DNA of 34,542 bases from Candidatus Wallbacteria bacterium (GTDB lineage: Bacteria; Muiribacteriota; JAQTZZ01), in assembly GCA_028687545.1 (NCBI GenBank), contig JAQTZZ010000041.1:1-34542 (forward strand), in the 5' to 3' direction. The position numbers and the translations under genes were made by a program. Under the pieces are notes generated by a model. The model saw only the letters and a list, made by a program, of their open reading frames with translations. It searched no databases and had not been told where the DNA came from. Every line of letters begins with the position of its first letter. The first letter of the stretch is position 1. This document shows positions 1,599 to 34,127 of the stretch, piece after piece.

Positions 1599-1630
1599 AT
1601 TTATATGCAGTAATCAATAGGGGGAAGTTG

Positions 1631-3154
1631 ATGAAAAACTTTGCCGTTCTGGTGATGATCCTGGCAGCAGGTTTGTGCCTTTCAGCCGGGCAGGCCAAGT
1701 GGACCCTGATGTTTTACATGACCGCAGCTCCGGACATTGAAGACGAGATGGTCAACAATCTCACGGAACTGGCTTCAGTCGACGAGTCTTCAGACATGAA
1801 CGTGATCGTGGAAGCCGACTGGGTGAAGACTGATCCCTGCTCAGACAAGAAATATTATGTCCCTGATCCTTATGACACAGGTACCTCCAGATACCGAGTC
1901 AGTGAAAATTCAGTCAAGCTGATCAAACACCTTGGCGAACAGAACATGGGTGATGTGAATGTGCTGTCTGATTTTTTGACATACTGCAAAACAAATTATC
2001 CTGCCGACAAATACATACTCTTCATCTGCGGCCACGGCAGCGGCTGGGAGTCCTATTCTGACCTGGAACTGCCACTGGCAGCCGGCAAGGAAGTACCAGT
2101 TGTAACCAAGACTTCGAATACAGTACCTGTGGAAACGCTGGATTCAAGGGCCGTTTCATACGATGATCTGGAAGCTGATTCGATCACTATTCCTGAACTT
2201 AAGGCTGCCATCGAAAAATTCAACAAGGCTATCGGCAGAAAGATGAACATGGTTGTTTTTGACTCCTGCCTGCTGGAAAACATCGAAACATTATATGAAC
2301 TGAAAGATGTGGTGACTCTGATGATCGGATCAGAGGCCGGCGTGCTCACCAAAGGAGTGCAGTATACCTCTTTCCTATTGCCGATCAAGGATGATCCTAA
2401 TGTCGCCTGGCTTACTCTCTGCGACGAATACTGCCACGCTTACGTCGGCGGCGGATCATTCTATCAGACGCTTGTGAACATGTTCGGAGGCACTGTCTCC
2501 TCGACCTTCATCGCCAATCCCAAGACAATTGTGTCCAATCTCAACCGCCTGGTGGAAGAGCTGATGAAAGTTAAGGGCCAGATGTCGATTTATAGCCTGA
2601 CCGGATTCGGCGAAGTGGTGCGCTATTACGATGTCGAGCAGTTCTGCCTGCAGCTTGTAAACGGCAACATCAATTTCAAAAATGCTCCGAATTACGGAAC
2701 CATCAAGGAAATTGCGGGACAAATCTTGGATAATTTCAAGTCAGTTCGTGCGACACTATGGACTGTAGGAAAATATAACCGCCTGGGACTGGGAGGACTC
2801 GGCATCTGGTGGCCGGAGAAAGACCGCTACCAGCTGTACAGGGAGCAATTGAAAAACCTCAGTTTCGGCAAAGACTGCCTCTGGGACGAATTTTTAGACT
2901 GGTTCGTCCTCGGTACTGTCAGACATTCAGTACGCGACAAAGTCAAAGACCTTGGCGAGATCAACAATAGAATCCGTTACAATATCTTCGGGTATGCAGG
3001 AGACAGCCTGGACCAGGACCTGAATGCCAGGGAACAGGTGGTGGCTGAGCTTAAAATTCTGCTTCCTCACCTTGAACCTGCAATCAGGGCTGAAATAGCG
3101 GCAAAGATCAAAGATCAGGAAGGATACGAGGAAATCAGCAAGCTGCTTGAGTAA
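1631..3154 (+). CDS. exported clostripain-family (C11) cysteine protease
   Basis: This is a 507-residue protein of peptidase family C11 (clan CD, caspase-like fold), a family that typically cleaves after Arg or Lys. A signal peptide covers residues 1-22 (basic start, hydrophobic core, AGQA before Lys). The conserved WTLMFYMTA strand opens the catalytic domain. The catalytic pair is visible as His135 in FICGHGSGWE and Cys213 in MVVFDSCLLENIE. A possible TTG start 3 nt upstream was rejected, because the GGGGGAAG ribosome binding site at 1620-1627 is correctly spaced from the ATG at 1631. The gene has its own promoter and ends at a shared terminator, so it is probably monocistronic. The export signal implies action in the periplasm or outside the cell. 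The substrate is unknown. Confidence 0.9.
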   Translation: MKNFAVLVMILAAGLCLSAGQAKWTLMFYMTAAPDIEDEMVNNLTELASVDESSDMNVIVEADWVKTDPCSDKKYYVPDPYDTGTSRYRVSENSVKLIKHLGEQNMGDVNVLSDFLTYCKTNYPADKYILFICGHGSGWESYSDLELPLAAGKEVPVVTKTSNTVPVETLDSRAVSYDDLEADSITIPELKAAIEKFNKAIGRKMNMVVFDSCLLENIETLYELKDVVTLMIGSEAGVLTKGVQYTSFLLPIKDDPNVAWLTLCDEYCHAYVGGGSFYQTLVNMFGGTVSSTFIANPKTIVSNLNRLVEELMKVKGQMSIYSLTGFGEVVRYYDVEQFCLQLVNGNINFKNAPNYGTIKEIAGQILDNFKSVRATLWTVGKYNRLGLGGLGIWWPEKDRYQLYREQLKNLSFGKDCLWDEFLDWFVLGTVRHSVRDKVKDLGEINNRIRYNIFGYAGDSLDQDLNAREQVVAELKILLPHLEPAIRAEIAAKIKDQEGYEEISKLLE

Positions 3155-10001: not shown

Positions 10002-12698
10002 ATGGTTGCGGAAAGCCCTGGAAATGCTGACTTGCAGGATTCGGGAACAACCTGTATATTTCTAGTTATGAACACAAGGCAGGGGCATAGCGGGCGTTCG
10101 GCATTGATCGAAAAACTGTACCTGAGGATCGGGGAAGCGGGCTGCATTGTCGTGGTCGGGCTGCCCGGCATGGGCAAGACCTGGACCGCCAATGCGCTTC
10201 AGGCGAAAATTATGGAAAAGCGGAAGACAATCCGCCTCAACTGCGTGGATGACTGGAATGCAGAGGATTTCTTCGCTGAGCTGAACACAAAACTGACCCT
10301 GCTCACAGGTAGCGCTGCCGGTTCCGCGGCAAATGAACCCGGGAAACTATGCGCACTTCTCGCAGAGAAATCGATCACACTGATTCTCGACGACATCCAT
10401 CTATGCGAAACAGAGGCAGTGAGCCTGATCGAGGTTGCGGCCAGGACAGCTCAAGGCTCGATCATCGCTTTTTCCCAGAAAAGGCCTGACCTGAAGCCTG
10501 CAGTGGTCCCTGACGTGTTCACCCAGATCCTCAGGGAACTGACTGAGCCTGAAACCGCGGAGATGGTAGGCTCGATTTTCGGTTTTCACGGAGTCCGGCC
10601 TCCCAAGGATTGTGCCAAGATCCATGAACTGACCAACGGACATCCTCTGTCAGTCAAGTTGGCCTGCGGAATCCTGCTTTCCGGGAAAACCACTCTCACT
10701 GACCTGCAAAAAGCTGATCTTTCGAATTTCAGGGACAGATATCTGGAAGAATTCATCTGGGAGATGCAGTCCGCTGAAGTGCGGAAAATGCTGTCCATTC
10801 TCAGTGTGCTGAGGATTCCGATCAACAGGAAGATTATCGGAGCAGGCAGGGAGGACTCCATTGACTGCATGCTGGATACCTGCCTGATTGAAAGCGATCA
10901 TTCAGGAGCGGTTTTCCTCCCCAGAATGCTGAAAAACATGGTTTTGAATAAAAACGGCGAAAGCAGGAGCAGGAAGCTGCATCTGGAAGCTGCAGGCCTG
11001 CTTTCAAGCTGCAAGGAAAACCCGGAGTGCCTAAGAGAGGCCTATTATCATTTCTCGATCGCCGGTGAAAGGGAGAAAGCAATCGATGCATTGCTGGAAC
11101 TGGGGAATCTGAATATCTATCTCCAGGAGGTTTTTGGAGACGCAGCTCACATCCTGAACCGGGAGATCGAGAAGGGACATTACAGGAACCAGGAACTGCG
11201 TGTGATGCTGGCAGACCAGCTGATTCACCTTGGAAAAATTGAGGAAGCTGAAGCTGTGATTGTGTCAATTCAAGGCTTCTACAGGCATTTTCTGGAAGGA
11301 AATATCGAGTACATGAAAGGCAGGACTGAAAAAGCGCTGGCCTTGTATCAGCGGATTCTCGGGACTTCAGGAAACAGGAAGTTCGAACTGCTGGTTTCGG
11401 TCTACATCGCGGAGTGCCAGATGGCCATGTGCAATTTCAGCGAATCAACCAGGTTTTTTGATGAAATCTCTGCAGACCCTGCTCTAGAGGAATATCCAGA
11501 TGTCAGGGCTCTGTATTGCTTTACCCGTGCAGTCGTATACTACCTCAACGGCAGCCTGACTCAGGCGCTGCCTCTGATCGAAGAAGCCTTATCCCTTTTC
11601 CGGAAACTTTCGGTCAGAGCCAGAGTAGTTTCCACCTTGAACACTAGAGGATACATGCTTTTTCTTCAGAACCGCGGGGTGGAGGCAGAATCCCAGGCTA
11701 ATGAAGCCATCGCGATCGCCAGGGAAATCGGCGATTCGGTCAAGGAAGCCGAGGGCTATGGTCTGCTTGCTGAAATCTGCAGCCTGACCGGCGCATACGA
11801 CAGGGCAATCGAATTCAGACTCAAAGCGCACGACCTGTACCGCCTGACAGGCAGCCGTGATTTCATAGGCGTCAATTACATCAGTATCGGAACAGCCTGG
11901 CTCAGGCTTCTGAATCTGGCTGACGCGGAATATTATTTCCTGAAAGGGATGGGTGTTGTAGACGGGCTGGAAGACAAGCTTGCCAAGCTTACAGCTGTGA
12001 TCAATTTCTGCGAATTCCTGATTTTCTCAGGCAGGCTCAGCGAGGCCTATAAGAGACTGACCGGCATCAGAAGTGAACTCAATGGCGAGATCCCCGGGGT
12101 GATGGCTTCTTTTTACTGGCAGCTGGGGATAGTCCTGGAACTGGCAGGCAGAAAGGACGAAGCAGGAGACTGCTTCAATCAATACCGCAGCGAGCTGGAC
12201 AAGCTGCCTTCCCAGACCAGGGAGGCGATCGAGCGCGACGATGCCTGGCTCAAAGGGAAAGTCGCAGAGACCAGGGACAGAACCAGGGTCCTCAGAAGGG
12301 GGAAAAACCCGGAGCTCCTTGATTTAGCTGCTGCCGACTCCCTGCGCGGGAAGCCGGAGAAATTCGAGATTCTGGCAGATTTCGTAAATTCCAGCCTGCA
12401 TGTGGACGGAAAGGAAATAAACATCTTCAGAAAGCGCACGCTGGCCAGGCTGCTGCGTGAAATTGCGGTAAAGCCAGGGACAGAGCATAAGGCGGCTGCG
12501 ATCTACCCCCGCATCTGGGGGCGCGGTTTTGTCCCTGGCGAAGATGACAACTCTTTCCGCAACAACATTTCACGCCTGAGAAGGATCCTGGATTCGAAAA
12601 AACTGGACCGCTTCATTGAAAATACAGACAATCCGAACTGCTGCCGCTTTAGCGACTCAGTGAATTACTGCATCCTGCTGCCGATGTTCGAGAATTGA
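10002..12698 (+). CDS. STAND-type ATPase regulator with TPR array and C-terminal winged helix
   Basis: The 898-residue protein has an N-terminal P-loop ATPase with Walker A GLPGMGKT (53-60) and Walker B LILDDIH (127-133), the latter followed by a region like the NB-ARC/MalT arm. A long helical middle of about residues 350-760 contains TPR units, for example AEGYGLLAEICSLTGAYDRA. A C-terminal domain (about 787-898) reads as an OmpR/SARP-like winged helix: a helix with RTLARLLREI, the IWGRGF turn, a recognition-helix-like NSFRNNISRLRRIL and a terminal β-hairpin. This order (ATPase-TPR-DNA binding) is that of MalT, but with a winged helix in place of a LuxR domain. It is probably a cytoplasmic, ligand-sensing transcription factor. 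ATG 10068 is an alternative start; neither has a strong ribosome binding site. A metalloprotease gene follows after 56 nt. Confidence 0.85.
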   Translation: MVAESPGNADLQDSGTTCIFLVMNTRQGHSGRSALIEKLYLRIGEAGCIVVVGLPGMGKTWTANALQAKIMEKRKTIRLNCVDDWNAEDFFAELNTKLTLLTGSAAGSAANEPGKLCALLAEKSITLILDDIHLCETEAVSLIEVAARTAQGSIIAFSQKRPDLKPAVVPDVFTQILRELTEPETAEMVGSIFGFHGVRPPKDCAKIHELTNGHPLSVKLACGILLSGKTTLTDLQKADLSNFRDRYLEEFIWEMQSAEVRKMLSILSVLRIPINRKIIGAGREDSIDCMLDTCLIESDHSGAVFLPRMLKNMVLNKNGESRSRKLHLEAAGLLSSCKENPECLREAYYHFSIAGEREKAIDALLELGNLNIYLQEVFGDAAHILNREIEKGHYRNQELRVMLADQLIHLGKIEEAEAVIVSIQGFYRHFLEGNIEYMKGRTEKALALYQRILGTSGNRKFELLVSVYIAECQMAMCNFSESTRFFDEISADPALEEYPDVRALYCFTRAVVYYLNGSLTQALPLIEEALSLFRKLSVRARVVSTLNTRGYMLFLQNRGVEAESQANEAIAIAREIGDSVKEAEGYGLLAEICSLTGAYDRAIEFRLKAHDLYRLTGSRDFIGVNYISIGTAWLRLLNLADAEYYFLKGMGVVDGLEDKLAKLTAVINFCEFLIFSGRLSEAYKRLTGIRSELNGEIPGVMASFYWQLGIVLELAGRKDEAGDCFNQYRSELDKLPSQTREAIERDDAWLKGKVAETRDRTRVLRRGKNPELLDLAAADSLRGKPEKFEILADFVNSSLHVDGKEINIFRKRTLARLLREIAVKPGTEHKAAAIYPRIWGRGFVPGEDDNSFRNNISRLRRILDSKKLDRFIENTDNPNCCRFSDSVNYCILLPMFEN

Positions 12699-20740: not shown

Positions 20741-21445
20741 CTATTCCTTGATCTTATAAAAGTTAACGTAATCCGCTTTCTGGGTGATGGTTTCTTTCTT
20801 CTGATTGAGCAGGTTGATGATGGTGTCGTTCTTTAGCTGCGTAGCGATTTTCATGGGATCATTGCCGAAATTGTCCAGAGAGTACTTATACGCGCCTTTA
20901 TCCAGAAGAAGCTGAACCGCGCTCACGTTCTGCTGAGCTACGGCATAAGTCAGAGCAGTGGTTCCATTCTTGTCCTTTGCGTTTACGTCTGCCCCTTTTT
21001 CGATCAGCATTTTGGCCAGATCCACCTGTCCGACATAGATGGCGTGCATCAGCGGTGTAATCTGGGAAGCGTCGGAATCATTGATCTTGGCCTTTTTTTC
21101 CAGGAGCATGTTGACGATCTTTGTCTGTTTGCAGACTATGGCATGCATCAGCGGGCTCAAGCCTTTTTTATCCTTAGTGCCCACTTCAACTTCCACCTTG
21201 TCCCCGAGCAGGTATTCGACGATATCCTTGTTTCCGCGCCTTGCTGCCATGATCAGAGGCGTGTATCCGTTGTTCAGATTATCCACTGCTTCCGGATCTG
21301 CACCCAGTGAAATCAAGTGCTTGACTTCAGTGAAGTTTTCCTCGTTGATCGCCGCGAAAAGTCTGGTGTCGTCAGGACTGGCCTGCAGAACCACTGACTG
21401 GATCAGAAATGCGAGCAGGATGATTTTTTTCAGGCACTTGATCAT
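20741..21445 (-). CDS. exported ankyrin-repeat protein
   Basis: The 234-residue protein begins MIKCLKKIILLAFLIQSVVLQA, a signal peptide with cleavage probably before SPDD. About five ankyrin repeats follow (DDTRLFAAINEENFTEVKHLIS, TPLIMAARRGNKDIVEYLL, SPLMHAIVCKQTKIVNMLL, TPLMHAIYVGQVDLAKMLIEKGADVNAKD, TALTYAVAQQNVSAVQLLLDKGA), then a polar tail. It is thus a periplasmic or secreted protein-binding module. The longer frame from 21514 was rejected: it would hide the signal peptide and start inside iorB. A TATAAT box 7 nt before ATG 21445, and no ribosome binding site, point to a leaderless transcript. Confidence 0.85.
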   Translation of the reverse strand: MIKCLKKIILLAFLIQSVVLQASPDDTRLFAAINEENFTEVKHLISLGADPEAVDNLNNGYTPLIMAARRGNKDIVEYLLGDKVEVEVGTKDKKGLSPLMHAIVCKQTKIVNMLLEKKAKINDSDASQITPLMHAIYVGQVDLAKMLIEKGADVNAKDKNGTTALTYAVAQQNVSAVQLLLDKGAYKYSLDNFGNDPMKIATQLKNDTIINLLNQKKETITQKADYVNFYKIKE

Positions 21446-21452
21446 GATACTA

Positions 21453-21458
21453 ATTATA
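21453..21458 (-). promoter_or_regulatory. -10 box of a leaderless promoter for the ankyrin gene
   Basis: A perfect TATAAT on the minus strand lies 7 nt before ATG 21445, which puts the expected transcription start at the start codon. The region is just after the iorB stop codon. No clear -35 box was found. Confidence 0.5.
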
Positions 21459-21480
21459 TCGGAAATAAATCCGAATTTCT

Positions 21481-22044
21481 CTATTTTTGGAATATCTGCC
21501 AGTTTTTTTCGCATACTCCAGGCTTGAAACTTTCCCTAAAGGATTTTTCCCAGGCTTCCCTGGGAATCGCTATTTCACTATTCAGGGCTTTCAGGAGCAG
21601 CACGTTCTGGATGCGTGTGTCGCCGAGTTTCTGGGCTTCCAGAAGAGCCTGCACCTCTTGGGATCTGAAATTCTGAACTTCAAAGAATTTTTTAAGTTGA
21701 GCAGGATACTCATCGCGTCTGTAACCGATCGGGACGATTTCCAGGTCGTCGTAAATCAGCAGGCCTCCCGGTTTCAGGTAACCGCAATACCTGTAAGCTT
21801 CCAGTTTTTCAAAACCGAGCAGGAAATCAGCGTAACCCGGGTCTATCAGCGGGGAATGGACGACAGGACCGATCTTGATCTGGGTGAGCAGGCTTCCGCC
21901 CCGCTGGGCCAGGCCGTGCACTTCAGACTTCTTGACATCGAATCCGGCATGAAAAGCAGCTCTGGCCAGCAGGTCAGAAGCTTTCATAAGTCCCTGGCCA
22001 CCCACTCCTGCCATGATGATCTGATATGCTTTCAGCTCGTTCAT
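21481..22044 (-). CDS. iorB: indolepyruvate:ferredoxin oxidoreductase beta subunit
   Basis: IorB partners IorA in the oxidative decarboxylation of indolepyruvate and other aryl pyruvates, with reduction of ferredoxin during amino-acid fermentation. The 187 residues show the gamma-domain signature AGVGGQGLMKASDLLARAA near the start, the VHGLAQRGGSLLTQIKIG segment, and DFLLGFEKLEAYRYCGYLKPGG. A GTG at 22056 in the same frame was rejected, because GAGGTG is correctly spaced from ATG 22044. It lies 15 nt downstream of iorA, and the two form one operon with the U32-ruvX-alaS genes upstream. Confidence 0.92.
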   Translation of the reverse strand: MNELKAYQIIMAGVGGQGLMKASDLLARAAFHAGFDVKKSEVHGLAQRGGSLLTQIKIGPVVHSPLIDPGYADFLLGFEKLEAYRYCGYLKPGGLLIYDDLEIVPIGYRRDEYPAQLKKFFEVQNFRSQEVQALLEAQKLGDTRIQNVLLLKALNSEIAIPREAWEKSFRESFKPGVCEKNWQIFQK

Positions 22045-28470: not shown

Positions 28471-29583
28471 CTATTTCCTGCCATGCTTTTCCCTTAGATA
28501 ATCCTTGATCTGCACAAGTGTCGCTCCAGGGGGAAACCAGATTTGTGTATATTCGTAATTCTTGCAGTATGGCAAGTTATCTATTGGTGAAATGTTAACT
28601 GAGTACAATTTATCCGCCGCTTCGATAGACGCGCCGTGTTCGATGAGAAAATCGGCTGTCTTGAAATGTCCGAAGTAACAGGCATAAAACAGAGCATTTC
28701 CATTTCCGCCTGTTGCGTTCACATCAGCACCGGCCTGCACCAGATCCGAAACAAGTTCAACGAATTCATTGCTCGCTTCAATGGATTTTTGATATGCTTG
28801 GATCTCATCCGGAATTGCTGCATCCTTTCTTATCCAAAGCTCTTTTCCAATCCTCCAGTCGCCTGCGGCCATCACCAGGGGAGTGTAAGCCCCGTTATGG
28901 TAATGGTCAGCGTATTTTACATCTGCCCCCTTTTCCAGCAGCTTTCTCACAACAGCAAGTTGTTTTTCCCTGGCAGCAAAGAAAAGTGCTGTCCGCCCAT
29001 GAATGTCCGTACAGTTTACATCTGCACCCAGATTCAAAAGCCGGAGACTTAAATCGGTTTTCCCGTAAATTATCGAGAGCATCAAAGGCGTTCGCGAATA
29101 ACGGTCCTCTTGGTTGATCTCTGAGCTTGAAATCACCAGGCTGTTTTCGTCTGGAATCGGGTATTTAAAGTGAAGTTCAGGGGTCATTTCCCAATAGGTA
29201 AGCCTGTCCAGCAGTGACGGATTATTTATCAATTCAATGTATCTCCGTGGCTTTTTAAAGTAGGGAATTCCATGGACACTGCATCTGCAAAAAAAACAGT
29301 CTTTGCTATTGTAAAGACTATATTCTCCATTTTGCGGGCAGTTGGGACCGGTGTGATGTATTAACTCAGGAAGGTACTTCAGGATCAGCATGGAGGACGG
29401 GATATAACCCCAGTCGCGATTGAATTCATCTAACTTGCCGTCAAACTCATAACGCAGTTGTCCGCATTGCATCACATTGCAGCAGGATCTAAATAGAAAT
29501 TCAGTGATTGCTACCAAACAGACAATCCCTATAACAGATTTTATCAGATAACTTCGAAGATAACTCTTGGTGTTATTTTCCAT
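28471..29583 (-). CDS. membrane-anchored, extracytoplasmic ankyrin-repeat protein
   Basis: The 370-residue protein has a short basic N-terminus (MENNTKSYLRSYLIK) and one membrane helix (about 16-32), so the rest should face the periplasm. A Cys-rich region of about residues 33-125 follows (SCCNVMQC, KDCFFCRC), consistent with disulfides outside the cytoplasm. The second half holds about four ankyrin repeats (TPLMLSIIYGKTDLSLRLLNLGADV, TALFFAAREKQLAVVRKLLEKGADV, TPLVMAAGDW..., NALFYACYFGHFKTADFLIEHGA). The start lies 6 nt after the stop of the TPR-caspase gene, so the pair is probably co-transcribed. No ribosome binding site is obvious, suggesting translational coupling. Confidence 0.78.
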   Translation of the reverse strand: MENNTKSYLRSYLIKSVIGIVCLVAITEFLFRSCCNVMQCGQLRYEFDGKLDEFNRDWGYIPSSMLILKYLPELIHHTGPNCPQNGEYSLYNSKDCFFCRCSVHGIPYFKKPRRYIELINNPSLLDRLTYWEMTPELHFKYPIPDENSLVISSSEINQEDRYSRTPLMLSIIYGKTDLSLRLLNLGADVNCTDIHGRTALFFAAREKQLAVVRKLLEKGADVKYADHYHNGAYTPLVMAAGDWRIGKELWIRKDAAIPDEIQAYQKSIEASNEFVELVSDLVQAGADVNATGGNGNALFYACYFGHFKTADFLIEHGASIEAADKLYSVNISPIDNLPYCKNYEYTQIWFPPGATLVQIKDYLREKHGRK

Positions 29584-29589
29584 AAGTAC

Positions 29590-32500
29590 TCAGTAAGGTA
29601 TCAGGCAATCGCCTATTCTCACTAATGGACAATCAATTAGAGAAGGCCATTCGGTTAATATTGACAAATCTAACAATTCAGAAAACAGCATCCCTTTGTT
29701 GTGATCTATCCAATTCTGATTCGCCAGCTTGAACAGCTGGGTAAAAACTTCTTCCGCATCTAACGCATTCAGTTCTCCATCACTTCCAACAAAGACATCC
29801 GGGTTGTTGAAAGCATTGATCCAGCTCGAGGCATTGTCGAGACCATGTATGCCTTTAGCAGACCAGCAGGCTGACAGAATTACAACCCTAGGATGATTAT
29901 TACCTAAATTTGGTTTTACTTCCTTGGGAGCAAGGTAACAATCCCGATAACTCCAATATGTATCATAGATTCTTTCATCTGGATACATTGCAATTCCTGC
30001 TATCGTACCATAACCATGACCAGCGATGATGATCTTGTCAAAATCTTTCAACGAAAGATAGTTTCTTAATGAGGCATCTTTGAATTGCGCTGGTGTGGGC
30101 GTATAGCATACCGTCACATTGTTTGTTTTCCTGAGTTCATTCTCTAACAGCTTGATCTGAGCGCTCCAGATCCCTTCCTTGGAAGTAAAAATCTGGCCGA
30201 AAATTGATTCAAAATACACTAAGTTTATTGCATTATTGATAAAATCCGCTTCTACAATGTTAGGATTGTATGCACACACGAGCAATGTAGGAAGCTTGAT
30301 CAGAATTCTCCTGATTTTCTGCCCGAAAATCAGCTCCAGCAGATTCATTCTACTCTCGTCGCCGGTTTTTACTGGAACAATCATGCCACCTTTAATGCTG
30401 CTTTGATCGCTCGGGTGACTGTCACTGGCCAAAAGTAATTTTCCGGACCTGAACTTACTCTTGCTGATTCGATCGCATATCACTTCATCAGAGTCATATA
30501 CATTTGTTTTAAACCTGAGGCTGATACTGTCACCTTCTTCAACTGGCGATGTCACTTCAATCTGAAAAATTGTATTGTCATTCATAAACTGGGTTTGGTC
30601 CAGGTCTGCGGCATTGCTGAAATCAATGAAAGAATTGGAAGCTTCATATTTTACACTCTTCGAAACTTTATCAGAGCCGATGCCCGGTCCAAGCCAGAGC
30701 GGCAATTTTAATGGTATTTTTTCTCCGAAAGCGATTAAATTTCCATTCAGCAACTCTTCACCAGGTTTTTTTCCGGAAAACCGATCATCGGGAGATGGGC
30801 TCAACACTTCAAGCTCCAATGTTCCAGCTTCATTGACAAAATGACGGCTGCTCGGGGAAGTTTCTGTGAATGACAATCTGATTTCCTCAGTTGCATTTGG
30901 ATTCCATGGTATCAATATTATTTCATCAGTAGCATCATCTGAGTAATCAGTGGCAAATTTAAGTGTTGTTTTTACAGGAGCTCCGTAGTTCGGTGGAAGC
31001 CCCATTCCTTTTGCAGAGTGGTTAATAAACACTGGTGCAAACTTGATCCTCTTCCCATCCTCATTCACCAGACAAATCGGCACCTGGTTGTCTCCCTCCA
31101 CCCAGATTTCAGGTGTTACTGATCTCGTGCCGAAGATTCCAGCATTCAGTCTGCATTTGGCTGTCAGGATCGTGTCCTGAAAATCGCCCGTGCCGCCGGT
31201 ATAGGTGGCTGTGTTGGTTTCAGTGGAAGCGAAGATGTGGCCGTCGCCTTCATTGCCGCTTTCTTCCCATTTCCATTCCTTGATAGCTGAGGCAGGCACC
31301 TGGGCTTCATGAGAGTCATCGTCCATGTAAACAAGTTTTGCAGTGAAGTTTACAGGCTCGCCTTGGGCGATGGTGTCTGTCATTGGGTCTATGATCACTC
31401 GAAGTATCTTTTTTACGATCAGGTCTTTCGCTTCCAGGGCATAATCATCACCGTCCTCAATAGTGACTCCGATGCAGTATACTCTCACAGCTTCAGCAAG
31501 GTGTTGATGAGCTGTCTGGATCTTGTTCAAGGCAAGTTCGCATTTGCCCAGGCCGAGTTCTGCCCGGCAATTGAAATATGGCTTGAATGAGCTTGAAACA
31601 TCAAGCCCTAGCACTTTATTGTACCAGTCTTCTGCTTCTGTGTAGGACTTCAGGCCGTAAAGAGCGTCGCCTTTGCCCAGATGATAATAAGGAAAATCAG
31701 CGGATTTCGGGTACTCAACGATACCCCTGTCAAAATATGTGATTGCTGTGGCGTATTCTTCAAGCCACAGGTAAATCTCCCCGCAATATCGCAGGCTGCT
31801 GGAGCGGAAAGTGGAGGAACCATAGATTGAGGTGCTGTAATCAAAGACCTTGGTCAGTTCGTCAATTCCGAGCTGGCCGTATTTGCGCTGGTTTTCGCTG
31901 TCATGCGTGATTTTCCTGAACGCATCGGAGAGAAGTTTGTAATTCTCTCCGATGCGGTACTGGGCCTGTATTTTGTACCTGTCATTGATGCCTGCCATGG
32001 CCAGGATCTTTTTCCAGTGATCAATGCCTGACAGGTAGTATTTTTCTGCATTGACCATGTCCTTCTCGTTTTGATATGTTAGCGCCACATAGCGCAGGTC
32101 AAAGGCTGCCTGGGAGATGCACTGCAGTAGCTGTCCGCCTGCCGGGTATCCGCTGATATACCGGTCATAGGTGTCTACTGCCTGAAGCAGATATTCGCGT
32201 CTGTAGGGCATTCCATTGTTTCCATAGTTGTTACCCAGATTGTCATAGCATCTGGCTAATGAGATGAGAATCGCGTCATTGGAGCTATAGTCCGGATATT
32301 TTATCAGTGAATCTTTATAAGCAGTGATTGCCTTGAGGCTGAATTTGTCCTTGTCTTCGAACTTATCCAGAACAGATTGAATGGACATACTATAAATATC
32401 ACCAGCACCCCAGTAATATTTAGGGGCATAAACACTATCTGGATAATCACCGGTCATCTTAAGATATTCTTCACCTCCCTGTTCATAATAAGAAATCCGC

Positions 32501-34098
32501 TTTTCCCTGGACAAGTCCGAAATATCCCCCAGGCATTTGAACGAGTCGGCTATGTATGAGCGCACAGTTTCTGTGGTAATGGCTCCAGAGGTGGCGCTTG
32601 GGGGTTTCGGATATTCCACGATGTTTTTTCTGTAAATCTCGATCGCTTTGTTGAGATAAAGTTCCTGGTCCACAGCGCTGATCCCGGATAGCGGGACCTT
32701 TGCCAGCCTGTAATAGGCATTCCCTAGTTGCACTTGGGTGTTATCAGGTTTTTTCCATTCCTCAAGATCTGCGACAGGCTTGTAATAGTCGAGCTGATGG
32801 CAGTAAGCATCCACGCCTTCTTTGAAATATTCCGCCCTCCTGGGGAGAAGCAGGTCTGGAAGAAATTCGTCAACCCGCATGCAAAAACGCCCCATCTCGC
32901 ACCAGACGCTCTGACTGATGTAATCGTCCGGAGGTGGCATGGCATACACATCCTTGAGATAGGCGATCGCTTTAGTATATGAGGCATCAGTTTGAATGTT
33001 GAGATAGATGGTCACACCTTCATAAAAGGATTCCCTCTTGTACGGCTTGGTGACGTCATATCTGATGCTGTCCTTGAAGCTGTTCACAGCCTGGTCCGGT
33101 GAACTCCAGTCCCTGTAACAGATGCCTATGTACCAATAGCATCCGTTTTGCGAGGCGTACGTAGAATCCATGGAAATGACCTGATTGAAAAGGTTGATTG
33201 CTTCTGAATAACTCTTTGCTTTATATGCTTTCACTGCCTTGCCATAGACGTCTGCCGGAGTCTCTGCTTTTCCGGTTCCATAGACATTCTGCAGTTCTGC
33301 ATAGACGAGAAAGGCTTTGTCTATGAATGCTTTCTGCTTTTTGAATTCAGCCTGATCGCCGCTATTGAGCAGCTCTCCGAGAGTCTGGGCGTGCATGGAC
33401 ACGATCAGCAGGCCATATTTATCAATCATTTCCTGAATAGTGATCTTGTATCTATCAAAACTCACCTGGGAATTCTGGGATTCTGTGATGATTTTCTTGA
33501 TTTCAGCAAGACATTGAGAAAGAAAATGAGTTGAGGGAAGATTCAGAATTTTTTCTTCGATTTTTCCGGCCAGAACGCCAAATCCTTTTTTAGCATTTGA
33601 ATCGGATTTGTGAAAGAAAAACGAGAATTCACGAAAAGGAGAGCCATTGCCCAGGACCAGCTCATTCACTATCGAATCAGCTATTTTTGCCGATTTCCTG
33701 CTGTTTTCGTCCAGGGAAGAGGCATAGACCTGCTCGATGGATTCTTGTGTCGCTTGATTACGGTGCCAGGCCGTGGCTTGGGTAGCGGATTTGGGAACGG
33801 CACAGGCACCGGAACCGGCTGTGGATGGGGTCAGGTCTGATTTAGGGTAGGCTTTGCTGGCTCGGCCAGATCCCGATTCAATATTTGTAGGGGCAGACCC
33901 ATCTGTCTGCCCAAGAACCTGGGAAAGGTGCAGGGTCCACAACGAAGCATTGATCAGGCTTTTCAGGGTTTCCAGGTCAGGTTGGATGCTGGTTTCGACT
34001 TCCTGAGCCATATCAGGTTGGGGGGGGCTTAAACATGACTCAGAGTAACTGCAAAAGAATGAAATAGAAACCAAAGCCAGAATCATTATTTTCCGCAC
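29590..34098 (-). CDS. exported TPR protein with C-terminal caspase-like protease domain
   Basis: The 1502-residue protein has a signal peptide (MRKIMILALVSISFFC), a low-complexity linker (about 50-110), and a TPR/Sel1-like helical array spanning about residues 280-900 with many units such as KAYKAKSYSEAINLFNQVI. A β-sandwich, Ig-like stretch follows from about 905 (IDPMTDTIAQGEPVNFTAKL), then a mixed region of 300 residues. The last 200 or so residues look like a clan-CD/CHAT caspase fold with His1361 in IIIAGHGYG and Cys1411 in VVILSACWSAKG. GTG 34098 is chosen over ATG 34116 because GGAGG is spaced 5 nt from it. It is probably periplasmic or surface-located; the protease assignment rests on the two spaced motifs. 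Confidence 0.75.
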   Translation of the reverse strand: MRKIMILALVSISFFCSYSESCLSPPQPDMAQEVETSIQPDLETLKSLINASLWTLHLSQVLGQTDGSAPTNIESGSGRASKAYPKSDLTPSTAGSGACAVPKSATQATAWHRNQATQESIEQVYASSLDENSRKSAKIADSIVNELVLGNGSPFREFSFFFHKSDSNAKKGFGVLAGKIEEKILNLPSTHFLSQCLAEIKKIITESQNSQVSFDRYKITIQEMIDKYGLLIVSMHAQTLGELLNSGDQAEFKKQKAFIDKAFLVYAELQNVYGTGKAETPADVYGKAVKAYKAKSYSEAINLFNQVISMDSTYASQNGCYWYIGICYRDWSSPDQAVNSFKDSIRYDVTKPYKRESFYEGVTIYLNIQTDASYTKAIAYLKDVYAMPPPDDYISQSVWCEMGRFCMRVDEFLPDLLLPRRAEYFKEGVDAYCHQLDYYKPVADLEEWKKPDNTQVQLGNAYYRLAKVPLSGISAVDQELYLNKAIEIYRKNIVEYPKPPSATSGAITTETVRSYIADSFKCLGDISDLSREKRISYYEQGGEEYLKMTGDYPDSVYAPKYYWGAGDIYSMSIQSVLDKFEDKDKFSLKAITAYKDSLIKYPDYSSNDAILISLARCYDNLGNNYGNNGMPYRREYLLQAVDTYDRYISGYPAGGQLLQCISQAAFDLRYVALTYQNEKDMVNAEKYYLSGIDHWKKILAMAGINDRYKIQAQYRIGENYKLLSDAFRKITHDSENQRKYGQLGIDELTKVFDYSTSIYGSSTFRSSSLRYCGEIYLWLEEYATAITYFDRGIVEYPKSADFPYYHLGKGDALYGLKSYTEAEDWYNKVLGLDVSSSFKPYFNCRAELGLGKCELALNKIQTAHQHLAEAVRVYCIGVTIEDGDDYALEAKDLIVKKILRVIIDPMTDTIAQGEPVNFTAKLVYMDDDSHEAQVPASAIKEWKWEESGNEGDGHIFASTETNTATYTGGTGDFQDTILTAKCRLNAGIFGTRSVTPEIWVEGDNQVPICLVNEDGKRIKFAPVFINHSAKGMGLPPNYGAPVKTTLKFATDYSDDATDEIILIPWNPNATEEIRLSFTETSPSSRHFVNEAGTLELEVLSPSPDDRFSGKKPGEELLNGNLIAFGEKIPLKLPLWLGPGIGSDKVSKSVKYEASNSFIDFSNAADLDQTQFMNDNTIFQIEVTSPVEEGDSISLRFKTNVYDSDEVICDRISKSKFRSGKLLLASDSHPSDQSSIKGGMIVPVKTGDESRMNLLELIFGQKIRRILIKLPTLLVCAYNPNIVEADFINNAINLVYFESIFGQIFTSKEGIWSAQIKLLENELRKTNNVTVCYTPTPAQFKDASLRNYLSLKDFDKIIIAGHGYGTIAGIAMYPDERIYDTYWSYRDCYLAPKEVKPNLGNNHPRVVILSACWSAKGIHGLDNASSWINAFNNPDVFVGSDGELNALDAEEVFTQLFKLANQNWIDHNKGMLFSELLDLSILTEWPSLIDCPLVRIGDCLIPY
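33885..33912. repeat. REP-like palindrome inside the TPR-caspase gene
   Basis: GGGCAGAC (33891-33898) and GTCTGCCC (33905-33912) form a perfect 8-bp stem with a 6-nt loop, preceded by TGTAGG. TAGGGGCAGAC...GTCTGCCC is a pattern I recall from dispersed palindromes in many environmental bacterial genomes. It lies in the low-complexity linker of the protein and keeps the frame open. Only one copy is in this window. Confidence 0.45.
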
Positions 34099-34127
34099 AC
34101 CTGCCTCCGGAATCATATAATTATTTT

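What the first reader, a model, noticed from the sequence alone, without database searches (positions are those of the whole stretch)
28471..34098. Exported TPR-caspase protein paired with a periplasmic ankyrin protein
Seen: a signal-peptide-bearing 1502-residue protein with a TPR array, an Ig-like stretch and a C-terminal AGHGYG/SACWSAKG pair, followed after 6 nt by an ankyrin protein with an N-in membrane anchor and Cys-rich periplasmic region. Known: TPR fused to CHAT caspase-fold proteases occurs in bacteria, mainly as cytosolic effectors. The exported location and the ankyrin partner make this an unusual arrangement, perhaps a periplasmic proteolytic switch.
Basis: partly seen in the sequence, partly recalled or inferred. 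Interest (0 to 1): 0.65.

Follow-up and report, generated by a model that had tools for sequence, protein, structure and literature searches.

The report
Swappable exported protease tips with partners
The protein and its neighbour belong to a family of large exported proteins in an uncultured bacterial lineage (Candidatus Wallbacteria), in which a protease-like tail and the small exported protein encoded right behind it are exchanged together like a cassette, the hallmark of toxin-plus-antidote systems bacteria use against one another.

Summary
In detail: 29590-34098(-) encodes an exported TPR protein whose last ~265 residues are a CHAT/caspase-like domain with the His/Cys dyad (profile-profile probability 92%, catalytic residues aligned), and 6 nt downstream lies a membrane-anchored, outward-facing ankyrin protein. 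The "periplasmic switch" reading is not the best one. The genome has six paralogs; a related genome (Candidatus Wallbacteria STB_16) has at least twelve loci; 38 other genomes of the phylum have none. All are a constant body (signal peptide, N-domain, TPR, conserved beta1) with a variable tip. Nearly every tip is followed at close quarters by an exported partner of unrelated types: ankyrin on a pilin-like anchor, the anchor alone, GspG-like, or PepSY. Partner class follows the tip (1 change on the tip tree) and not the body (4 changes, the maximum). STB_16 holds orphan tip+partner cassettes, genes that switch parent sharply inside beta1, and a second tip class. The body ortholog of the window gene carries another tip, and its old tip+ankyrin type lies just behind it as an orphan. 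Best explanation: a polymorphic toxin/immunity-type system with protease-like tips and periplasmic inhibitors. Toxicity and neutralisation are untested. Novelty: new variant of a known kind.

The parts
29590..34098 (-). Full-length exported TPR/caspase-tip protein (1502 aa from GTG; 1508 aa if ATG at 34116 is used)
   Evidence: ORF; GGAGG before the GTG; six paralogs in own genome
34030..34098 (-). Signal peptide (MRKIMILALVSISFFCSYSES...)
   Evidence: only hydrophobic segment of the protein; nearly all paralogs with an intact 5' end have one
33277..33756 (-). Conserved N-domain (residues 121-280 of 1508)
   Evidence: 42% mean pairwise identity among six paralogs
31402..33276 (-). TPR array (residues 281-905)
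   Evidence: Pfam TPR_12 above cut-off; best relative is 38m of STB_16 (43%)
31081..31401 (-). beta1, most conserved block (residues 906-1012), main crossover zone
   Evidence: 61% mean pairwise identity against 22% in tip; parent switches fall here
30388..31080 (-). beta2 (residues 1013-1243), moves with the tip
   Evidence: best relative is orphan 38o (41%), not the body ortholog 38m
29593..30387 (-). Variable caspase/CHAT-like tip (residues 1244-1508)
30016..30018 (-).
   Evidence: present in 15 of 16 tips; aligned to CHAT His
29866..29868 (-).
   Evidence: invariant in 16 of 16 tips; aligned to CHAT Cys
28471..29583 (-). Partner gene: N-in membrane anchor, pilin-like Cys motif, ankyrin repeats (370 aa); proposed immunity/inhibitor protein
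   Evidence: reciprocal best match of the partner of orphan 38o (33%, E=1.5e-21)
29479..29559 (-). Partner TM segment (residues 9-35)
29269..29340 (-). Partner CP..G.Y...C..HG motif (residues 82-105)
   Evidence: same motif in the C18, L044, L067, L069 and L039 partners
28609..29139 (-). Partner ankyrin repeats
   Evidence: Pfam Ank E=3e-21

Best explanation
This is one active locus of a polymorphic toxin/immunity-type system. A constant body (signal peptide, N-domain, TPR array, beta1) exports and presents a variable C-terminal tip, here a CHAT/caspase-like cysteine protease domain. The gene directly behind encodes the cognate, closely coupled, membrane-anchored periplasmic partner, which most likely binds and blocks the tip, protecting the producer and kin while the protease passes through or arrives in the periplasm. 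Tip (with beta2) and partner are stored and exchanged as one cassette by homologous recombination in beta1. Shown by sequence: modularity, orphan cassettes, mosaics, partner-tip linkage, export signals, conserved catalytic residues. Inferred: proteolysis, toxicity, target in another cell, neutralisation by the partner.
For: Six paralogs in own genome: identity 61% in beta1, 22% in tip. Exported partner in tight coupling (-25 to +8 nt at the 17 pairs measured) behind 21 of the 22 tips whose downstream sequence is available. Full-length PepSY partners found only behind tips: 6 of 6, plus one fragment behind a tip (one weak divergent hit elsewhere). Partner class: 1 change on tip tree (0 of 500 shuffles as low), 4 (maximum) on body tree; 1 on the tip tree of the same 11 rows. 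Orphan tip+partner cassettes without signal peptide or TPRs behind full genes in STB_16. C41's TPR body matches 38m best (sister, 100/99), but its beta2, tip and ankyrin partner match the orphan just behind 38m best. Gene 40m is 94-100% identical to 48m up to residue 899, then 81-100% to 39m over 900-1249. C22 in own genome: 713-bp 99.2% direct repeat brackets tip+partner. A second tip class on a homologous body, L044. Tox-Caspase, Imm-Ank, Sec/T2SS export with TPRs and toxin+immunity cassettes are described elements of polymorphic toxins (PMC3482391); periplasmic ankyrin immunity exists for Tle/Tli (PMC11470151).
Against: No toxicity or inhibition data. No outer-membrane route identified, only that the cell is diderm with nine secretin matches. 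One caspase tip has Gln for the catalytic His (39m) and one orphan tip has no partner (L068). The pilin-like anchor domain also occurs away from tips, so that partner type is not dedicated. STB_16 is a fragmented, low-coverage assembly (cov 2-3 in record titles), so single contigs could be chimeric; the own-genome paralogs alone carry the linkage signal only in part.
Confidence: 0.66

Rival explanations
1. A diversified family of secreted proteases (nutrition, predation or surface remodelling) each co-encoded with a private inhibitor that prevents self-digestion during export, as with staphopain/staphostatin; no toxin role.
For: Export signals, protease-like tips; PepSY domains are regarded as protease-inhibitory propeptide modules (own knowledge of the family); nine secretin matches for secretion. 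Also explains tight tip-partner linkage.
Against: Does not by itself explain silent orphan cassettes lacking start and export parts, the extreme tip diversification with a conserved body, or cassette replacement in beta1.
Confidence: 0.2
2. Periplasmic proteolytic switch: the ankyrin protein is a sensor/regulator or substrate of the caspase-like protein in one signalling pathway of the cell.
For: Both proteins face the periplasm and are closely coupled.
Against: Ankyrin replaced by PepSY or pseudopilin-like proteins at sister loci; partner follows the tip and not the body; orphan tips lack signal peptides.
Confidence: 0.07
3. Surface-antigen variation by cassette conversion: tips are exposed variable regions changed to evade phages or predators, partners are tip-specific chaperones or secretion adaptors (the GspG-like partners resemble pseudopilins).
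For: Cassette store and conversion-like mosaics; T2SSG hits of three partners.
Against: Catalytic His/Cys kept while the rest diverges to ~22%; unrelated partner folds are not expected of one chaperone role.
Confidence: 0.07

Closest known systems
Polymorphic toxin systems (Zhang et al. 2012, PMC3482391), Tox-Caspase class with Imm-Ank type immunity
   Same: Sec-exported N-terminal body with repeats, caspase-like domain as C-terminal-most module, partner gene directly downstream, toxin+immunity order, standalone cassettes, recombination at the 3' end
   Different: Body (N-domain, beta1/beta2) matches no described trafficking domain in the libraries searched; every partner is extracytoplasmic; partner types include PepSY (0 occurrences in that paper's held text) and GspG/pilin-like proteins; toxicity unknown
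Rhs main/orphan loci of Salmonella LT2 (Koskiniemi et al. 2014, PMC3967940)
   Same: Full-length gene followed by an orphan tip+immunity pair lacking start and export parts, with a near-identical block allowing recombination (522 bp at 95% there; 218 bp at 91% in L038, 713 bp at 99.2% around the C22 cassette here)
   Different: No Rhs repeats; different body, tip and partner families; switching not observed experimentally
Tle/Tli T6SS lipase and ankyrin immunity of Enterobacter cloacae (PMC11470151, PMC10294624)
   Same: Ankyrin-repeat immunity protein exported to the periplasm
   Different: Tli is a lipoprotein and its toxin a T6SS phospholipase; here a TM-anchored ankyrin with pilin-like motif and a Sec-exported caspase-like tip
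TPR-CHAT proteins (PF12770)
   Same: TPRs plus C-terminal CHAT-type His/Cys domain
   Different: Signal peptide, very divergent CHAT (below the Pfam cut-off), cassette exchange, extracytoplasmic partner

Membership tests
Polymorphic toxin system | Constant N-terminal trafficking part with export signal | tested here: met
   signal peptides in members with intact 5' end (the start of the C39 ORF is uncertain and shows none); N-domain and beta1 conserved
Polymorphic toxin system | Variable C-terminal tip, different tip classes on homologous bodies | tested here: met
   tip 22% against beta1 61%; caspase-like and a second Cys-containing tip class in L044 and L067
Polymorphic toxin system | Cognate partner gene immediately downstream, linked to the tip | tested here: met
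   21 of 22 tips; tree test
Polymorphic toxin system | Standalone tip+immunity cassettes and recombination with the main gene | tested here: met
   orphans in L038, L042, L049; mosaics and repeats; low-coverage assembly is a caveat
Polymorphic toxin system | Tip is toxic and the partner neutralises it | not testable with these tools
   needs expression experiments
Caspase-fold (clan CD) / CHAT protease | His and Cys after consecutive hydrophobic strands | tested here: met
   Cys 16/16, His 15/16; hhalign 92% with catalytic residues aligned; PDB 8tl0 CHAT protein E=0.0013
Caspase-fold (clan CD) / CHAT protease | Caspase fold in 3D | tested here: inconclusive
   single-sequence AlphaFold2 failed, pLDDT 31
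CHAT family PF12770 as curated | Score above Pfam gathering cut-off | tested here: not met
   17.9 bits for the isolated window tip against cut-off 24
Imm-Ank immunity proteins | Ankyrin-repeat protein encoded directly behind the toxin | tested here: met
   neutralisation itself untested
Transglutaminase/papain-like toxin (second tip class) | Cys-His-Asp catalytic triad | tested here: inconclusive
   one Cys in the expected motif invariant but no invariant His; Pfam Tox-PL-2 and Transglut_core only at E about 0.2

The most novel reading that the evidence does not exclude
A lineage-specific polymorphic effector system of Candidatus Wallbacteria with a new TPR/beta delivery body, in which exported caspase-like protease tips are held in check in the periplasm by inhibitor families not known for this role: PepSY proteins and pilin/GspG-derived membrane proteins, the latter sometimes extended by ankyrins.
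Probability: 0.45. Interest if true: 0.75.

Novelty: new variant of a known kind. Interest (0 to 1): 0.6.

Why it matters
If true, an uncultured phylum has its own polymorphic effector arsenal built on exported caspase-like proteases, with a natural catalogue of matched tip/partner pairs. It would give new families of natural inhibitors of caspase-fold proteases (PepSY, pseudopilin-like, membrane-anchored ankyrin), and tip-partner specificity could be tested directly with pairs that exist in nature.

Tried and rejected
(1) Unique TPR-caspase/ankyrin pair: rejected, six paralogs and several partner types. (2) Completely unrelated toxin domains at each locus (first guess): rejected for the own genome, since all six tips keep His/Cys; a different tip class was seen only in STB_16. 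(3) Single-sequence structure of the tip: useless (pLDDT 31), so no fold search was run. (5) Calling the second tip class a transglutaminase: not secured. (6) Pilin-like anchor as a dedicated partner: rejected, the domain is widespread in both genomes. (7) Known anti-phage defence system: PADLOC gives only ankyrin-based hits for the partner and none for the main protein. (8) Some CHAT loci were first read on the wrong strand, corrected. (9) L070 was first read in the wrong frame, corrected.

Full report
What is there. The window is one complete 34.5-kb contig (G000:C41) of a 4.54-Mb, 97% complete genome. The gene pair sits next to alaS and ruvX at the contig end. It has one N-terminal hydrophobic segment, TPRs, a conserved stretch I call beta1 (906-1012) and beta2 (1013-1243), and a 265-residue tip. 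The names beta1/beta2 are labels only; no fold was obtained for them. The partner gene follows after 6 nt and encodes an N-in TM anchor, a CP..G.Y...C..HG motif and ankyrins.

The tip is CHAT/caspase-like. Alone it scores below the Pfam cut-off (17.9 against 24 bits). Sixteen related tips share an invariant Cys and a His in 15 of 16; 7 of 16 hit CHAT, best 2e-5; the profile finds the CHAT protein 8tl0 in the PDB (E=0.0013); profile-profile comparison with CHAT domains of the same phylum gives 92% and E=6.6e-7 with both catalytic motifs aligned. AlphaFold2 on the single sequence failed, so the fold itself is unproven.

It is a family. The genome has six full-length paralogs of 1379-1508 aa on six contigs among housekeeping genes. 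A second genome of the same family-level group, Candidatus Wallbacteria isolate STB_16, has twelve or more loci, many truncated at contig ends. With the beta1 profile, none of the other 38 genomes of the phylum has the body. Mean pairwise identity among the six own paralogs: N-domain 42%, TPR 28-36%, beta1 61%, beta2 32%, tip 22%.

Each tip has an exported partner. Partners are of four kinds: TM anchor + CP-type motif + ankyrins (C41, C15, C39, 42m, 38o), TM anchor + CP motif (C18, L044, L067, L069, 39o), TM + GspG-like domain (40m, 42o1, 42o2 hit T2SSG at 1e-7, 6e-5 and 3e-8; 39m by its motif only), and secreted PepSY proteins (C16, C22, 38m, 48m, 49o1, L070; Pfam PepSY weak, E=0.002-0.005 for two, the rest by alignment A8). 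At the 17 pairs measured, gaps run from -25 to +8 nt. Of the 22 tips with downstream sequence, 21 have such a partner; L068 has none. The full-length PepSY partner (six copies) occurs nowhere else in either genome, and the one further fragment also lies behind a tip. The CP anchor domain does occur elsewhere, so it is a general module of these bacteria.

Partner follows tip and not body. On the tree of 16 caspase tips the class PepSY versus TM-anchored needs one change (0 of 500 shuffles as low, mean 5.0). On the tree of 11 bodies it needs four, the maximum possible; with the same 11 rows on the tip tree, one. For example the bodies of C16 (PepSY) and C18 (TM-CP) are sisters with 100/99 support. 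The tip-tree split has moderate support (84/87) and several long branches, so the count matters more than the exact topology. C18's tip lies next to the PepSY clade although its partner is TM-anchored.

Cassettes and crossovers. In STB_16 full-length genes with their partners are followed by tip genes without signal peptide or TPRs, each with a partner: L038, L042 (two in a row), and similar orphans in L049. Gene 40m is 94-100% identical to 48m over residues 600-899 (C41 numbering) and 16-25% in most windows after 1050, while against 39m it is 10-33% before 900, 81-100% over 900-1249 and about 31% in the tip. So parents switch in beta1 and again where the tip begins. The window gene gives the clearest case: its TPR body pairs with 38m (43%, body-tree sister 100/99), but its beta2 (41%), tip (23%) and ankyrin partner (33%) have as reciprocal best match the orphan cassette lying directly behind 38m on the same 7.3-kb contig. 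In that lineage the active gene apparently received a PepSY-type cassette and the C41-type cassette was displaced behind it. In the own genome, C22 shows a 713-bp, 99.2% direct repeat of its TPR region behind the partner gene, bracketing the tip+partner segment.

A second tip class. L044 and L067 carry on a homologous body a different C-terminus with an invariant Cys but no invariant His, also present as L068, L069 and 39o with their own signal peptides. Four of these five have a TM-CP partner. A papain/transglutaminase-like fold is a guess (Pfam E about 0.2).

Interpretation. Constant exported body, variable C-terminal tip, tip-linked downstream partner, silent cassettes and 3' recombination are the described anatomy of polymorphic toxin systems, for which caspase-like tips, ankyrin immunity proteins and Sec-dependent export with TPRs are recorded (PMC3482391); main/orphan recombination is known for Rhs (PMC3967940) and periplasmic ankyrin immunity for Tle/Tli (PMC11470151). 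That all partners face the periplasm fits a protease that passes through or acts in that compartment. The cell is diderm (Omp85) with nine secretin matches, so a T2SS route is possible but unproven. Whether the tip kills anything is unknown; a private secreted protease with its inhibitor is the main rival.

Caveats. STB_16 contigs have coverage near 2-3, so individual joins need long reads; the 9% DNA divergence between 40m and 48m argues against a simple mix-up of the same copies. No description of such a system in Wallbacteria was found in the papers held (nine papers, one mention each).

Noticed in passing
window 1628-3154 (+): Exported clostripain (Peptidase_C11, E=3e-34), another clan-CD protease, without a partner gene behind it.
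   Followed up: partly
L118 962-2500 and 2527-2835 (G000:C34): An exported clostripain-like protein (judged by eye) followed after 26 nt by a CP-motif pilin-like protein: a possible further protease/partner pair.
   Followed up: partly
window 20741-21514 (-): Ankyrin protein of 257 aa with an N-terminal hydrophobic segment and no tip next to it.
   Followed up: partly
L125 1995-3161, L126 2-622, L127 963-2765: TM-anchored CP-motif proteins in the own genome, with ankyrin-like stretches, without an adjacent tip: possible orphan immunity genes.
   Followed up: no
L127 7065-8720: CP motif apparently inserted inside an alpha/beta-hydrolase-like exported protein.
   Followed up: no
L071 438-2815: An IS21-like element interrupts a PepSY partner gene behind a caspase tip.
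   Followed up: no
L044 5454-5580 and 10664-10790; L012 5644-5802 and 10619-10777: Direct repeats (100% and 87%) flank the whole gene+partner unit.
   Followed up: partly
L014 4638-6293 (G000:C7): Exported TPR+beta1 protein without a tip, a likely truncated or tip-less member.
   Followed up: no
window 10002-12698 (+): STAND-type NTPase (NB-ARC/AAA) with TPRs.
   Followed up: no
L012 12614-15693: Three similar exported paralogs of 288-292 aa in tandem.
   Followed up: no
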